In this document: positions 1-11,090 of the stretch, piece after piece
Layout: every line of letters starts with the position of its first letter
Position numbering within the stretch: the first letter of the stretch is position 1
From: JAGLHV01 sp023143305 [NCBI: Clostridia bacterium]
GTDB taxonomy: Bacteria > CBDUZB01 > JAGLHV01
Assembly: GCA_030637025.1 (NCBI GenBank)
Contig: DAOVVV010000053.1
Location: 1-11,090 of the forward strand
Reading direction: 5' to 3'
Length of the DNA stretch: 11,090 nt
Program-made: the position numbers and the translations under genes
The notes under the pieces: generated by a model
Told to the model about the DNA's origin: nothing
Databases searched by the model: none
Seen by the model: only the letters and a program-made list of their open reading frames with translations

Positions 1-691
1 CTATAGGTGTTTGTTGTATAGAAGATTGCTGATCGAGAGCTTGTTGGACTATGCTTTGTTCATCAACGGGTTGTTCAACAGAAGGTTGTTCGGGAACAAT
101 TTGTTCTGTTGGTGTTTGTTGTATAGAAGATTGCTGATCAAGAGCTTGTTGGACTATGTTTTGCTCATCAACGGGTTGTTCAACAGAAAGTTGTTCGGGA
201 ATAATTTGTTCTGTTGGTGGGGGTTCTATATTATTTTGTTTATCAGCAGGTTGTTGGTCATCCGGTTGTTCATCAATGGGTAAAATAGATTCTAAGGCCT
301 CTTTGACCTGTTGTATGTGAGAAGAAAAGCTTTCTTTTTTTTGGATTGTTTCCGGCTCAAGTATTTGTTTTATTCTCTCTTCTCGTTCTTTTTCTATCAA
401 CAGTTCTTTTACTTCGGTAGTTGTTTCTGTTTGTTCTTCCGGTGTTTTTTCTTGAGTTCCAATGGTTGGGTCCGGATCTTGTACCAGTTTTTCTTCCAGA
501 TAATCTACGATTTTTTTTAGCTGATTTTCTATGGGAAGGACATCTTCCGGATCTTTGTTTTTAATTGCATTGTCTTTTGTAGGAGGTTTATAAAAGACTT
601 TTATTTCTTCCTGGTCTTTGATGTCATTAGCGTCATTGTTATTATTATCGTTATTATTATCGTTATTATTATCGTTATTATTATCGTCCAT
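1..691 (-). CDS. Gln/Glu/Pro-rich repeat protein, 5' part only (runs off left edge)
   Basis: An uninterrupted minus-strand reading frame runs from an ATG at 691 to the window edge, giving 230 codons with no stop, so the C-terminus is missing. I do not recognise the family. The N-terminus is an Asp/Asn microsatellite (DNNN repeated, about residues 2-19). A charged, probably partly helical stretch follows (about 20-135, with Lys/Glu-rich segments). From about residue 155 comes a low-complexity part built of 35-residue repeats rich in Gln, Glu, Pro and Val (units contain PTEQI.PEQ, VEQPVDEQ and QQALDQQSSIQQ). There is no signal peptide or membrane segment in the visible part, so it looks cytoplasmic and largely disordered. 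The composition is coherent as protein on this strand, whereas the opposite frames give Leu/Phe-rich nonsense. The ATG is chosen because no other usual start codon lies in frame between it and the Shine-Dalgarno sequence. Existence fairly sure, function unknown. Confidence 0.8.
   Translation of the reverse strand, partial: MDDNNNDNNNDNNNDNNNNDANDIKDQEEIKVFYKPPTKDNAIKNKDPEDVLPIENQLKKIVDYLEEKLVQDPDPTIGTQEKTPEEQTETTTEVKELLIEKEREERIKQILEPETIQKKESFSSHIQQVKEALESILPIDEQPDDQQPADKQNNIEPPPTEQIIPEQLSVEQPVDEQNIVQQALDQQSSIQQTPTEQIVPEQPSVEQPVDEQSIVQQALDQQSSIQQTPI
6..215 (-). repeat. Two tandem 105-bp coding repeats (35-aa unit)
   Basis: Positions 6-110 and 111-215 align without gaps with 5 differences in 105 bases (about 95% identity). 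At least two of the differences change an amino acid (Pro/Leu and Ser/Asn on the minus strand); others are silent. The period is a multiple of three, so copy-number change keeps the frame. A further copy appears to begin at the window edge (1-5), so the array probably continues outside. Confidence 0.9.
637..684 (-). repeat. 12-bp microsatellite encoding Asp-Asn-Asn-Asn
   Basis: Three exact plus-strand copies of cgttattattat (649-684) are preceded by one copy with a single change (637-648). On the minus strand they encode DNNN units at the very N-terminus of the repeat protein. The 12-bp unit allows slippage without frameshift. Confidence 0.9.
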
Positions 692-2945: not shown

Positions 2946-3185
2946 ATGGATTGTGAGGAATTATTTTTTATTTTATCCGATTACTTTGATCAGGAATTGG
3001 AAATGGAACTTTATGATGAAATGGAGGAACATATAAAGACTTGTTGTTATTGTGAGTTTTTGTTTGATACCTTTAGTAAAACACTGGAACTTTGTTCTGA
3101 GATGGAACAATTAGAAGTTTCGCCGGAAGTTCATTTAAGAATTATACAATTAATTCGTATAGAAATAGAAAATGACACAAGGTAA
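2946..3185 (+). CDS. Small soluble zinc-finger anti-sigma factor (ZAS type)
   Basis: A protein of 79 residues directly after the ECF sigma gene, which it probably binds and holds inactive. It has the anti-sigma zinc motif H29-x3-C33-x2-C36, with C3 placed 25 residues earlier as the likely fourth ligand, as in the RsrA/ChrR-type ZAS fold. Hydrophobic segments are short and there is no transmembrane helix, so unlike RsiW-type anti-sigmas it should act in the cytoplasm. Known soluble ZAS proteins often sense redox or metal stress through these thiols, but that is inference here. Extra cysteines (C34, and another at about residue 50) could join a disulfide switch. AAGGAG overlaps the end of the sigma gene, indicating coupled translation. 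No second domain follows, so it is a minimal anti-sigma. Confidence 0.85.
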   Translation: MDCEELFFILSDYFDQELEMELYDEMEEHIKTCCYCEFLFDTFSKTLELCSEMEQLEVSPEVHLRIIQLIRIEIENDTR

Positions 3186-4740: not shown

Positions 4741-6699
4741 ATGAACAGTTTGATTTTTCCGATTGTAGTAGGGTTCTTAGGGCTTTTATTTGCTGGGTGG
4801 ACATATTTGACGGTAAAGAAGAAGAATGAAGGTTCGGAAAAAATGAAAGAAATTGCTGAAGAGATTCATTTAGGAGCGATGGTGTTTTTGCGCAGGGAGT
4901 ATAAAATCATTGGTTTTTTTATTGTTTTGGTATTTATTGTTTTGAGTGTTTTTTTAAGTTTTTGGACCGGGATGGCGTATCTTTTAGGTGCGGGTTGTTC
5001 GATGTTAGCCGGTTTTTTGGGTATGCAGGCAGCGACCAGATCCAGTAGTCGTACCTGCCAGGGAGCTGTTACCGGAAAAATATCGGAAGCATTAAATATT
5101 GCTTTTTGCGGCGGTTCGGTAATGGGAATATCTGTAGCAGCTTTAGGTTTGATTGGTTTAGGTTTTACTTATATTTTAACTAAGAATCCGCTTATAATTA
5201 ACGGATTTGCCATGGGTGCCAGTTCTATTGCTCTTTTTGCCCGTGTAGGCGGTGGAATTTATACCAAAAGCGCGGATGTAGGAGCGGATTTAGTAGGTAA
5301 AGTGGAAGCGGGTATACCCGAAGATGATCCGCGTAATCCGGGAGTTATTGCTGATAATGTCGGAGATTGTGTGGGAGATACAGCCGGGATGGGAGCGGAT
5401 TTATTTGAGTCTTACGTCGGTTCGGTAATTGCTACTATGGCTATCGGGGCTACTCTGGCCAACCCTTTAAAATGGATGTCTTTACCCTTGTTTCTAATTA
5501 CTATCGGATTAGTTGCTTCGGTTTGTGGAATACTGTCTTTAAAAATTTTAAAGAATATAAAACCGCAATTAGCTCTCAGATATGCCACTTATATAGGGGG
5601 AGTTCTTTTTCTGCTGGGTGCCTATTTTATAATCGCTAAAACTTTTTCTTCGCTAAATTTATTTTGGGCTGTTTTAACCGGATTGGTTGCCGGAATGTTG
5701 ATTGGATTAGAAAGTGAATATTTTACCAGCGGCCCTCCTATAAAAAATATTGCTAAAAGTTGTCAATCCGGAGCGGCAACAAATATTATTACCGGTTTAG
5801 CCGTGGGTTTTGAAAGTACAATATTACCTGTTTTAACTATAAGTTTGGCTATTTATATTGCTTATTTTTTTGGAGGACTTTATGGTATTGGTATTGCCAG
5901 TGTAGGTATGCTGGCTACTATCGGTATAGTAATGTCTACTGATTCCTATGGCCCGATTGCCGATAATGCCGGAGGAATTGCCCAAATGTCCAAGCAGGGA
6001 CCGGAAGTAAGAAAAATTACCGATGAGCTGGATTCTTTAGGTAATACTACCGCTGCTGTAGGTAAAGGGTTTGCTATTGGTTCTGCGGCTCTTACTTCTT
6101 TAGCGTTGTTTTCTGCTTATCAGCGTACGGCGAATCTGTCGGTGATAAATTTAACCAATACTACGACGGTTATCGGCTTATTGTTAGGGGGGTTAATGCC
6201 CTTTATTATGGCCGCTTTAACCTTGAAAGCCGTAGGCAGGGCTGCTAACAAAATGGTAATAGAAATCAGGCGGCAATTTCGGGAAATTGTAGGTTTAATG
6301 GATGGAAAGGCAAAACCGGATACAAAAAGGTGTGTTGATATTGTTACCACCGGTGCACTTAAAGAAATGATATTGCCCGGATTGATTGCTTTACTTGCTC
6401 CTTTAGTAGTTGGTTTTGTTATGGGAAAAGAAGCCCTGGGCGGATTCTTGGCGGGGGCGACTACCTGTGGTGTTTTATTAGGCATAATGATGAGTAATGG
6501 AGGAGCTTGCTGGGATAATGCTAAAAAATGGATTGAGGAAGGAAATATGGGAGGAAAGGGTACACCGACTCATGCGGCAGCGGTGGTTGGGGATACAGTA
6601 GGAGATCCTTTTAAAGATACCTCCGGACCATCTATGAATATTTTAATAAAATTAATGGCCATAGTATCTTTGGTTTTTGTCCCTCTTTTTAGTAAATAA
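4741..6699 (+). CDS. hppA: Membrane-bound ion-translocating pyrophosphatase, K+-dependent, Na+-type signature
   Basis: Integral membrane pump that hydrolyses cytoplasmic pyrophosphate to phosphate and exports a cation. At 652 residues with about 16 hydrophobic segments it is full length. The catalytic face is complete: [11 protein letters not shown] (179-189), [20 protein letters not shown] (194-213), the [18 protein letters not shown] block (399-416) and the C-terminal [17 protein letters not shown] block. In [19 protein letters not shown] (434-452), A438 and G441 occupy the positions where K+-independent enzymes have Lys and Thr, so it should need K+. Glu223 in DLFESY is placed as in Na+-pumping family members, whereas plant H+-pumps carry the acidic residue about one turn later (SYAESS). 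I therefore infer Na+ (or mixed Na+/H+) transport. AGGTGA precedes the ATG by 6 bases. Family is certain; ion choice needs assay. Confidence 0.95.
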
Positions 6700-7238: not shown

Positions 7239-7360
7239 TTATTAGACTGAAATAAGGATAATATTGTGGCAGCAGGTAATTAGATAAAATGTTATTTGCG
7301 GGGGATGTCTTTTTCATGGGGGGGGACCAAAGAATAGCGGGTTAGATTCCTTTTTTTCTC

Positions 7361-7581: not shown

Positions 7582-7669
7582 TTGTCATTCCGCTCCGCCT
7601 CAGGCGGATGATGCGGAATCTATAATTTTTTTAAATATCAATAGATTCCTGCTTTCGCAGGAATGACAA
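7582..7669. repeat. Palindromic MITE-like element with two inverted hairpin arms
   Basis: The ends are exact inverted repeats: TTGTCATTCC (7582-7591) and GGAATGACAA (7660-7669). Each arm is itself a hairpin. The left arm runs ATTCCGC to GCGGAAT with an inner TCCGCC/GGCGGA stem. The right arm is ATTCCTGC-TTTC-GCAGGAAT. The inner edges carry GGAATCTAT and ATAGATTCC, so the unit is two opposed copies of one 'GTCATTCC...GGAATCTAT' module around an AT-rich centre. It is more GC-rich than its surroundings, as expected for an inserted mobile repeat. Similar GTCATTCC-type repeats are widespread in bacterial intergenic DNA. No transposase is present. Confidence 0.75.
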
Positions 7670-7688
7670 TCAAGGTAAAAAGGCTATT

Positions 7689-10256: not shown

Positions 10257-10284
10257 TTGACAAAACGGAAATTTGTGCTATATT
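10257..10284 (+). promoter_or_regulatory. Promoter of the riboswitch-controlled transcript
   Basis: TTGACA (10257-10262), 16 bases, then TATATT (10279-10284) preceded by TGC (extended -10). Transcription would begin near 10291, about 25 bases before the aptamer. Confidence 0.75.
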
Positions 10285-10315
10285 TAAATTAGAAAAAGGA
10301 AATATGTAAACTTTA

Positions 10316-10405
10316 GTCCGAAAAGGCAAACCTCGAGTGATTGAGGGGCGCAAAGCTACGGAACTTAACTGGGTTACAAAATTGGTAAAGTTAGCCGAGC
10401 TACCG
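10316..10405 (+). promoter_or_regulatory. Cyclic di-GMP class I (GEMM-I) riboswitch aptamer
   Basis: The core follows the GEMM-I consensus. GGCAAACC (10325-10332) comes first. Stem P2, CCTCGA/TTGAGG (10331-10336 with 10341-10346), is capped by the GNRA loop GTGA (10337-10340). Next is GGCGCAAAGC (10347-10356), then a P3 arm holding ACGG, a CTTAACT/AGTTAG stem and the closing GTTAGCCGAGCTACCG, which aligns with the consensus GGTAGCCGGGTTACCG. Ligand is cyclic di-GMP. The aptamer's 3' strand overlaps the left arm of the terminator at 10395-10437, so the two folds should exclude each other. Together with the promoter and terminator this accounts for most of the gene-free stretch 10163-10535; nothing else is seen there. 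Confidence 0.9.
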
Positions 10406-10437
10406 AAAAAATACTTTTCCGGTAGGTCGGTTTTTTT
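10395..10437 (+). terminator. Riboswitch expression platform: intrinsic terminator
   Basis: CCGAGCTACCG (10395-10405) pairs with CGGTAGGTCGG (10420-10430) with one G-G mismatch. Inner AAAA/TTTT pairs may extend it, and seven T (10431-10437) follow. The left arm is shared with the aptamer's 3' strand. Ligand binding should therefore break the terminator and let transcription continue (ON switch, inferred). Confidence 0.85.
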
Positions 10438-10535
10438 ATATCCTGATATCCAGGGGAATTATAATACCTGGAATAGTCAAGGAGAAAGAGACAAATAAAG
10501 TATTATATGGTGGTTGAAAGAGGTATAACAAAAAA

Positions 10536-11090
10536 ATGGAATCAAAGATGATTAATATAATAAAAACAACTAAATTAACGGTAAGGGGTTCTTTATTATT
10601 TGTTTGTTTCTTAGGTGGTATATCTATATTTTCATTAGCGATGAATTCTACCAATTATACTCTTGATTGGGATGTAATTAATAGTGGGGGAGACGAGGGG
10701 AGTTCTACTAATTACCGGATAAATGTTTCTGTTGCTCAAGCTGCTATTGATTCAGCAGCAAGTACTAGTTATCAATTAGAAGCAGGCTACTGGTCCGGGC
10801 TTGCCGGTGAAGAGGCTATTTCTTATCAGACAGATAACCAGATAAAGAATAGTACTGAAGGAATTTATATTGGTAATGGTATTTATAATCTTGACGGAAG
10901 CAGTCAAACTAAAGCCCGGAATGTAAACAATAGCCAAACAGCAATTTATCATATTCGTATAGAAAACGACGGAAATAGCTCTGATACCTTTGTGGTTACC
11001 GGAACCGGAGGAGATATTAATTGGACGGTGACTTATTACGATGCCTTAAGCGGAGGGAGTAATATTACAGCTAATGTAACCGGGGGTGGA
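10536..11090 (+). CDS. Secreted surface protein under c-di-GMP control, 5' part only (runs off right edge)
   Basis: An open frame of 185 codons from an ATG at 10536 to the window end with no stop. The N-terminus is a Sec signal peptide: basic n-region (Lys4, Lys10, Lys13, Arg17), hydrophobic core LLFVCFLGGISIF and a likely cut after SLA at residue 35. The mature part starts with NSTNYTLDWDVINSGGDEGS and ends its first unit at YQLEAGYWSG (about 79-88). I associate this NYxL...GG...SxxYxLxxGyW pattern with surface proteins of uncultured lineages. A second beta-rich segment (about 105-185) reads IYHIRIENDGNSSDTFVVTGTGG and then WTVTYYDALSGG, like Ig-like extracellular modules. AAAGAGG lies 12 bases before the ATG; a second ATG at codon 5 is possible. 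The long leader carries the c-di-GMP riboswitch. Probable adhesin or matrix protein; the exact role is open because most of the gene is outside. Confidence 0.85.
   Translation, partial: MESKMINIIKTTKLTVRGSLLFVCFLGGISIFSLAMNSTNYTLDWDVINSGGDEGSSTNYRINVSVAQAAIDSAASTSYQLEAGYWSGLAGEEAISYQTDNQIKNSTEGIYIGNGIYNLDGSSQTKARNVNNSQTAIYHIRIENDGNSSDTFVVTGTGGDINWTVTYYDALSGGSNITANVTGGG

What the first reader, a model, noticed from the sequence alone, without database searches (positions are those of the whole stretch)
10257..11090. c-di-GMP riboswitch with overlapping terminator ahead of a large secreted protein
A strong promoter, a GEMM-I aptamer and a terminator whose left arm (10395-10405) is also the aptamer's 3' strand stand before a signal-peptide-bearing, beta-rich surface protein. 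Mutual exclusion of the two folds predicts that c-di-GMP turns expression ON. This makes the protein a likely adhesin or matrix component. The riboswitch class is known; this target protein family and its logic appear worth describing.
Basis: partly seen in the sequence, partly recalled or inferred. Interest (0 to 1): 0.7.

Follow-up and report, generated by a model that had tools for sequence, protein, structure and literature searches.

The report
c-di-GMP switch before secreted protein
A known kind of RNA sensor for the bacterial signal c-di-GMP sits in front of a secreted surface protein and is built to switch it on; it is one of a dozen such sensors in the same little-known species, some apparently wired on and others off.

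Summary
Window 10316-10408 is a c-di-GMP class I (GEMM-I) aptamer: RF03167 61.4 bits, and RF01051 65.3 bits on the identical stretch of the same species. A terminator hairpin (10394-10405 with 10420-10431, ending in seven T) uses the aptamer's own 3' strand. Computed folds exclude each other, so c-di-GMP should turn the gene ON. The promoter is conserved in two sister genomes. The target has a signal peptide; homologues of 427 and 508 aa carry a beta-sandwich repeat and a type IX secretion-type C-terminal domain. 'Secreted surface protein' is supported; 'adhesin' is inferred; 'large' is not shown.

Three species, the only ones held of their phylum, carry 12, 12 and 19 GEMM-I leaders. By terminator position 13 of 43 are ON-type like the window (its own copy included) and 15 OFF-type with an antiterminator whose pairing is leader-specific; both types occur in one pilin-like gene cluster. 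In both sisters the window's orthologous leader carries a second copy of the aptamer's 3' strand. A new member of a known riboswitch class inside a large, possibly two-way regulon. Nothing was tested at the bench.

The parts
10257..10284 (+). sigma-70 type promoter, TTGACA-16-TATATT, extended -10
   Evidence: scan, 11 of 12 matches; conserved in both sister loci
10316..10408 (+). c-di-GMP class I (GEMM-I) aptamer; pocket bases by recalled Vc2 numbering G10325 (G20), A10352 (A47), C10403 (C92); P2 loop GUGA at 10337-10340
   Evidence: RF03167 61.4 bits; RF01051 65.3 bits on the identical stretch; the pair 10327-10350 is C-G or T-A in 42 of 43 related leaders
10394..10437 (+). intrinsic terminator whose left arm (10394-10405) lies in the aptamer's P3/P1 3' strand; right arm 10420-10431; T run 10431-10437
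   Evidence: -19.2 kcal/mol hairpin; mutual exclusion
10536..11090 (+). target gene, open at window end: signal peptide, STNY..YQLEAGYW module, start of a DUF11-like beta-sandwich repeat (from about 10827)
   Evidence: homologues with T9SS-type C-terminal domain

Best explanation
A transcriptional ON riboswitch of c-di-GMP class I. Transcription starts downstream of the 10257-10284 promoter; the aptamer folds first. If c-di-GMP binds, the P3/P1 3' strand stays in the aptamer and RNA polymerase reads through to the gene at 10536. If not, the same strand is taken by the 10420-10431 arm and transcription stops in the T run. The product is exported by Sec, probably passed on by a type IX-like secretion system, and displayed on the cell surface as part of a c-di-GMP-driven change of surface proteins and pili. 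Shown here: the aptamer match, the shared strand, computed exclusivity, the conserved promoter, domains of homologues, GGDEF proteins with intact motifs in the same species. Inferred: ligand identity, sign of control, secretion route, role on the surface.
For: Covariance-model matches. Terminator left arm inside the aptamer; stem probability 0.97 free, 0.12 with the aptamer enforced. The same direct layout is found in 13 of 43 leaders of the three genomes, the window's own copy among them, ahead of TadE/G-like, pilin-like, C25-protease and other exported proteins. The selectivity base is G, as in 39 of 43 leaders. GGDEF domains: 8 in G002, 7 in G005, 9 in G001; all 15 that I read have an intact GG(D/E)EF motif. 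HD_5 (HD-GYP type) domains: 3, 6 and 7 in the same order. The G001 homologue carries a T9SS type A sorting domain (39.5 bits, cut-off 23); PorV-like genes follow in G001 (25.2 bits, under the cut-off 27) and G005 (28.3, over it); SprA-like blocks occur in all three genomes, under the cut-off. Precedent: the pilM riboswitch, an ON switch whose terminator uses aptamer strands (PMC9262584, passages).
Against: P1 is nearly absent: of three model pairs one is standard, the others G-A and C-C, so affinity may be low; Cd1 also lacks P1 yet binds (PMC9262584). The full-length fold strongly prefers the terminator, so switching must be kinetic. In both sister genomes the orthologous leader has a second copy of the aptamer 3' strand and its terminator is compatible with the proximal aptamer (0.96-0.97), so the layout is not conserved across orthologues. 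In G001 the homologue's signal-peptide region is not in one open frame with the rest. No binding or expression data.
Confidence: 0.82

Rival explanations
1. The aptamer senses 3',3'-cAMP-GMP rather than c-di-GMP, with the same ON logic.
For: GEMM-I variants changed at a pocket base do so (PMC9481103 and PMC7266159 passages; that the change is G20 to A is recalled); 4 of 43 leaders of this lineage have A there; 4 of 15 GGDEF domains have N at a base-recognising Asp (position recalled).
Against: The window has G at this position.
Confidence: 0.08
2. OFF switch: ligand binding favours termination.
For: 15 of 43 related leaders have an OFF-type layout with a separate terminator; class I switches of C. 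difficile act as OFF switches (PMC6200980 passages).
Against: In the window the terminator does not form beside an insulated aptamer (0.00), and no strand after the aptamer pairs with the P3 5' strand (0.0 expected pairs).
Confidence: 0.06
3. Decayed or non-switching leader: the terminator always wins, giving constitutive attenuation.
For: Weak P1; terminator probability 0.97 in the full leader.
Against: Pocket bases, GNRA loop, promoter and terminator are present, and the aptamer and promoter are conserved with the sisters.
Confidence: 0.04

Closest known systems
c-di-GMP class I riboswitch (GEMM-I, RF01051; sibling model RF03167 c-di-GMP-I-GGC)
   Same: aptamer fold, pocket bases, genes for surface and pili
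   Different: no difference found in the core apart from a weak P1; target and host lineage are not mentioned in the passages I read
pilM riboswitch of Geobacter metallireducens (cAMP-GMP sensing, ON; PMC9262584 passages)
   Same: terminator built from aptamer strands plus a downstream arm; ligand gives ON
   Different: pilM senses cAMP-GMP; the window keeps G at the selecting position
Cd1 riboswitch of Clostridioides difficile (class I, OFF; PMC9262584, PMC6200980 passages)
   Same: the OFF-type related leaders resemble it: separate terminator plus antiterminator
   Different: the window's own leader is not of this type; in C. difficile OFF and ON go with two different aptamer classes
Bc2 riboswitch of Bacillus thuringiensis (class I, ON; PMC11218506 passages)
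   Same: class I aptamer acting as an ON switch, ahead of the gene cap (an adhesion protein, recalled)
   Different: other host and target; its platform was not compared here

Membership tests
c-di-GMP class I riboswitch | match to the curated covariance model above its cut-off | tested here: met
   RF03167 61.4 (cut-off 59); RF01051 65.3 (cut-off 35, identical stretch)
c-di-GMP class I riboswitch | pocket bases G20, A47, C92 (named in PMC11218506, passage) | tested here: met
   G10325, A10352, C10403; placed by recalled Vc2 numbering on the model alignment
c-di-GMP class I riboswitch | GNRA tetraloop on P2 | tested here: met
   GUGA 10337-10340 between paired 10331-10336 and 10341-10346
c-di-GMP class I riboswitch | P1 helix | tested here: inconclusive
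   one standard pair of three in the model's register
c-di-GMP class I riboswitch | binds c-di-GMP and changes expression | not testable with these tools
   needs in-line probing and transcription assays
c-di-GMP-I-GGC subfamily (RF03167) | fits this model better than the parent model | tested here: inconclusive
   cmscan keeps RF03167 by E-value, but the parent gives more bits; bits of two models are not directly comparable
cAMP-GMP riboswitch (GEMM-Ib) | A at position 20 (recalled) | tested here: not met
   G in the window
Type IX secretion substrate | C-terminal sorting domain | tested here: inconclusive
   met in the G001 homologue (TIGR04183 39.5 over 23); the G005 homologue passes FlgD_ig but Por_Secre_tail is 24.7 under 27; the C-terminus of the window's own gene lies outside the window
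Type IX secretion substrate | SprA translocon in the genome | tested here: inconclusive
   four blocks in each genome, best E 9.6e-19, in one open frame in G001 and G002 and on two contigs in G005, none over the 200-bit cut-off

The most novel reading that the evidence does not exclude
One aptamer class runs a two-way surface programme across a candidate phylum: the same c-di-GMP signal turns some pilin, Tad and surface genes on and others off, including paralogues in one gene cluster, purely through the expression platform; and the sign of an individual switch flips during evolution by gain or loss of a second copy of the aptamer's 3' strand, the window's locus being one such flip relative to both sister species.
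Probability: 0.35. Interest if true: 0.66.

Novelty: new member of a known kind. Interest (0 to 1): 0.45.

Why it matters
It gives uncultured bacteria a testable rule for when they change their surface. C. difficile 630, with 16 c-di-GMP switches, was described in 2018 as having more than any sequenced genome outside a few deltaproteobacteria (PMC6200980, passage); here three incomplete genomes of 1.8, 1.9 and 2.6 Mb carry 12, 12 and 19. Both platform types with one aptamer class in the same genome, with orthologues to compare, would make the evolution of riboswitch sign directly testable in vitro.

Tried and rejected
No whole genome is held for the window; the species was reached through L002 instead. 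The viral contig scan with the target protein found 5 pattern matches and no relative. The profile of the beta repeat found one solved sequence, at E = 1, a superoxide dismutase, taken as chance; the fold search gave no match with E at or below 0.001, best 0.0066, with TM-scores about 0.2-0.47 in the 50 rows shown, among them pilin domains, so no named fold is claimed. No c-di-GMP-II switch was found in the three genomes, but that search rang in no control either, so absence is not shown. EAL domains were not found in the three genomes while ringing in 6 of 14 controls. I tried to read the 2017 survey in which I recall RF03167 was described; it is not held, and the three held papers that name c-di-GMP-I-GGC only list it (passages). 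I considered that the left arm of OFF-type terminators is a diverged copy of the aptamer 3' strand: mean similarity over 15 leaders is 4.7 against 3.8 in shuffles (highest of 500 shuffle means 4.4), but only 4 of 15 stand out singly, so it is not claimed; complementarity of the right arm to the aptamer 3' strand is clearer (-13.1 against -7.1 kcal/mol).

Failed or flawed scripts: one search used a structure string one character short; one search did not enforce its constraints (redone); one search blocked pairs wrongly and gave zeros throughout (redone); misplaced the P3 5' strand in several leaders, the window included (redone). In some searches the window and its copy G002:C119 are both rows; counts 'of 43' leave the window out and keep C119. 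The 18 'direct' rows were sorted by an earlier rule and are not the same set as the 13.

Full report
What is there. The stretch 10257-11090 holds a promoter, a c-di-GMP class I aptamer, an intrinsic terminator and the start of an exported protein, in that order on the + strand. At gathering scores cmscan over Rfam lists one match in the whole window, RF03167 at 10316-10408 with 61.4 bits, one overlapping clan member being left out. The parent model RF01051 gives 65.3 bits on contig G002:C119, identical over the aptamer. Which label is better cannot be settled from bits of two models. The promoter has 11 of 12 consensus bases with a TG before the -10, and its core stands unchanged in the two sister loci.

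How it should switch. The hairpin 10394-10405/10420-10431 has -19.2 kcal/mol and ends in the T run 10431-10437; 9 of the 15 bases on its full predicted left arm are paired positions of the aptamer model, 7 of them in standard pairs. Chance complementarity is unlikely: 2 of 5000 shuffles of 10409-10431 reach the observed -19.0 kcal/mol. In the free fold of 10291-10438 the terminator stem has mean probability 0.97 and P3 0.05; with P2 and P3 enforced the terminator falls to 0.12. Along the growing transcript P3 has 0.61-0.84 for ends 10405 to 10424 and 0.06 or less from 10426, where the terminator takes over. Ligand binding before that point should give read-through: an ON switch under kinetic control. 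That is inference; nothing was measured. A weak point is P1, with one standard pair of three in the model's register.

Ligand. The base equivalent to Vc2 G20 is a selectivity factor between cyclic dinucleotides (PMC9262584 passage; see also PMC9481103 passage); in the window it is G. Equivalents of A47 and C92 are present, placed by recalled numbering. G002 has 8 GGDEF domains, G005 7 and G001 9; of these 24 I read 15, all with an intact GG(D/E)EF motif and 13 with an RxxD just before it. HD_5 domains number 3, 6 and 7 in the same order; no EAL domain was found.

The target. The window shows 185 codons: a signal peptide by simple criteria, a module found also in MAGs named Clostridia, and the start of a repeat shared with MAGs named Zipacnadia and Stahlbacteria. 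Ten copies of the repeat (seven from L003, one each from L001, L004 and, cut short, the window) align with 63% mean column identity. AlphaFold2 on the L001 copy gives a beta-rich domain with pLDDT 85 and pTM 0.81, which I read as a beta-sandwich; 6 of 10 copies match DUF11 at E <= 0.1, best 1.8e-5, the L001 copy scoring 21.6 bits under the cut-off of 24.6. The homologue in G001 (427 aa as read) ends in FlgD_ig and T9SS type A sorting domains over their cut-offs; its signal-peptide region is not in one frame with the rest, so that copy may be broken or misassembled. The homologue in G005 (508 aa, with a hydrophobic N-terminal stretch) ends in FlgD_ig over the cut-off and Por_Secre_tail under it. 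A PorV-like gene follows in G001 (25.2 bits, under 27) and G005 (28.3, over 27). SprA-like blocks occur in all three genomes, below the curated cut-off. So a secreted, probably surface-displayed protein is supported; adhesin or matrix remains a guess.

Context: a regulon. The window is the same species as MAG contig JAGLHV010000205.1 (3140 of 3148 bases), genome G002. Of 41 genomes searched (G002 and relatives), 9 have an RF01051 match at E <= 0.001, 8 over the cut-off: G002 12, G005 12, G001 19 (one of them under the cut-off), and six others 1 or 2. The collection holds three species of the phylum, and all three have the set. In the 43 leaders the pair next to the pocket is C-G in 30, T-A in 12 and C with T in 1, which supports the fold; relatedness inflates the p-value printed there.

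Two platforms. I sorted the 43 leaders by where the terminator lies. Direct, like the window: the left arm starts 14-25 bases before the aptamer's end, and beside an insulated aptamer the terminator has probability 0-0.15: 13 of 43, among them the window's own copy and one disrupted leader under the cut-off (G001:C32). Mimic: the terminator lies wholly downstream (+13 to +31), keeps 0.67-0.99 beside an insulated aptamer, and the strand after the aptamer pairs with the P3 5' strand before the right arm is made: 15 of 43, with 3.3-11.1 expected pairs in 14 and 1.6 in one. The remaining 15: five with a second 3' strand; four (G001:C142, C183, C48, G005:C333) with a mainly downstream terminator and 0.2-2.2 expected pairs, so the line to the weakest mimic leader is not sharp; three with the start codon 2 bases after the aptamer; three with no clear platform (G001:C86, G005:C346, G005:C112:16431). 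For 16 mimic-type leaders (the 15 and G005:C346), own pairing averages -11.6 against -9.9 kcal/mol for swapped partners, reached by 6 of 20000 permutations; 18 rows classed direct show nothing (-7.4 against -7.3, 6388 of 20000). The set was picked by a motif, and orthologues are not independent, so this is support, not proof. The mimic layout predicts OFF.

What they control. Not every target was scanned. Direct leaders stand before TadE/G-like genes (by eye in G002:C31, where Pfam found nothing; Pfam TadE and Tad just under cut-off in G001:C56's operon), 2 kb before a Tad-like operon with a secretin (G001:C169), before a 580-aa pilin-like protein (by eye; DUF4900 under cut-off), a HEAT-like gene followed by a C25 protease (37.9 bits, cut-off 23), and the window's gene. 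Mimic leaders stand before pilin-like proteins with DUF7305 (over the cut-off in four of five scanned) and small exported proteins without Pfam match. The start-codon type precedes a subtilase in all three genomes, split in two frames in G001. In G002:C323 three leaders stand in series before three pilin-like genes: direct, mimic, mimic; G001:C72 has direct then mimic. If the signs are right, c-di-GMP would exchange paralogous pilin-like proteins. Mixed signs have precedents: in C. difficile class I is OFF and class II ON (PMC6200980 abstract and passages), and class I Bc2 of B. thuringiensis is ON (PMC11218506 passages). In the searches made I saw no report of both signs at this scale with one class (listings and abstracts; passages); most subscription papers are not held, and GEMM-rich Geobacter genomes were not examined.

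The window locus against its sisters. Promoter, aptamer and terminator align closely, but in G001:C9 and G005:C69 about 76 bases more lie between, bounded by two copies of the aptamer 3' strand, and the terminator uses the second copy. There the switch precedes an unmatched ORF and an S74-domain ORF in G001 and a similar ORF without Pfam match in G005; in G001 the target's homologue comes next, then the PorV-like gene; in G005 an S74 gene, the homologue and a PorV-like gene lie on another contig. Either the window lineage deleted the stretch between the two copies, or the sisters gained it. The sisters' terminator is compatible with the proximal aptamer (0.96-0.97), so their sign may differ; I could not decide it.

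Verdict. As a riboswitch it is a new member of a known class; the two-way regulon and the possible sign flips are what would interest a specialist.

Noticed in passing
G002:C323 (L087) 7260-7343, 4833-4918, 1497-1578, - strand; G001:C72 (L112): Riboswitches of opposite predicted sign in series before paralogous pilin-like genes.
   Followed up: partly
G001:C9 (L117), G005:C69 (L101), G001:C178:2822, G002:C31:4467, G005:C336:3944: Leaders with a second copy of the aptamer 3' strand; sign of control unclear. The last three precede a giant exported-looking protein in G001 and G005.
   Followed up: partly
G001:C56, G002:C125, G002:C323:7260, G005:C179: 4 of 43 leaders have A instead of G at the ligand-selecting position; at two of the loci the related copies in the sister genomes keep G.
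   Followed up: no
L134, L139, L141, L145: 4 of 15 GGDEF domains read have N where a base-recognising Asp is expected (position recalled), a possible change of nucleotide preference.
   Followed up: no
L085, L097, L109: Subtilase gene whose ATG lies 2 bases after the aptamer in all three genomes, suggesting control of translation.
   Followed up: partly
L114 3164-3619, L095 4479-4934: PilZ-domain gene (a protein family that often binds c-di-GMP) right behind an OFF-type pilin-like gene in two genomes.
   Followed up: partly
L003 2070-7394: Protein of 1774 aa in a MAG named Zipacnadia with seven copies of the target's beta repeat.
   Followed up: partly
window 2-691, - strand: Start of a low-complexity acidic protein with repeated E-Q segments, open at the window edge, no Pfam match.
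   Followed up: no
window 2946-3185: Small cysteine-bearing ORF after an ECF sigma factor gene, looks like its anti-sigma factor (by eye).
   Followed up: no
window 7585-7670: Intergenic element with inverted repeats (ATTCC..GGAAT type) before the Na/Pi cotransporter gene, seen by eye.
   Followed up: no
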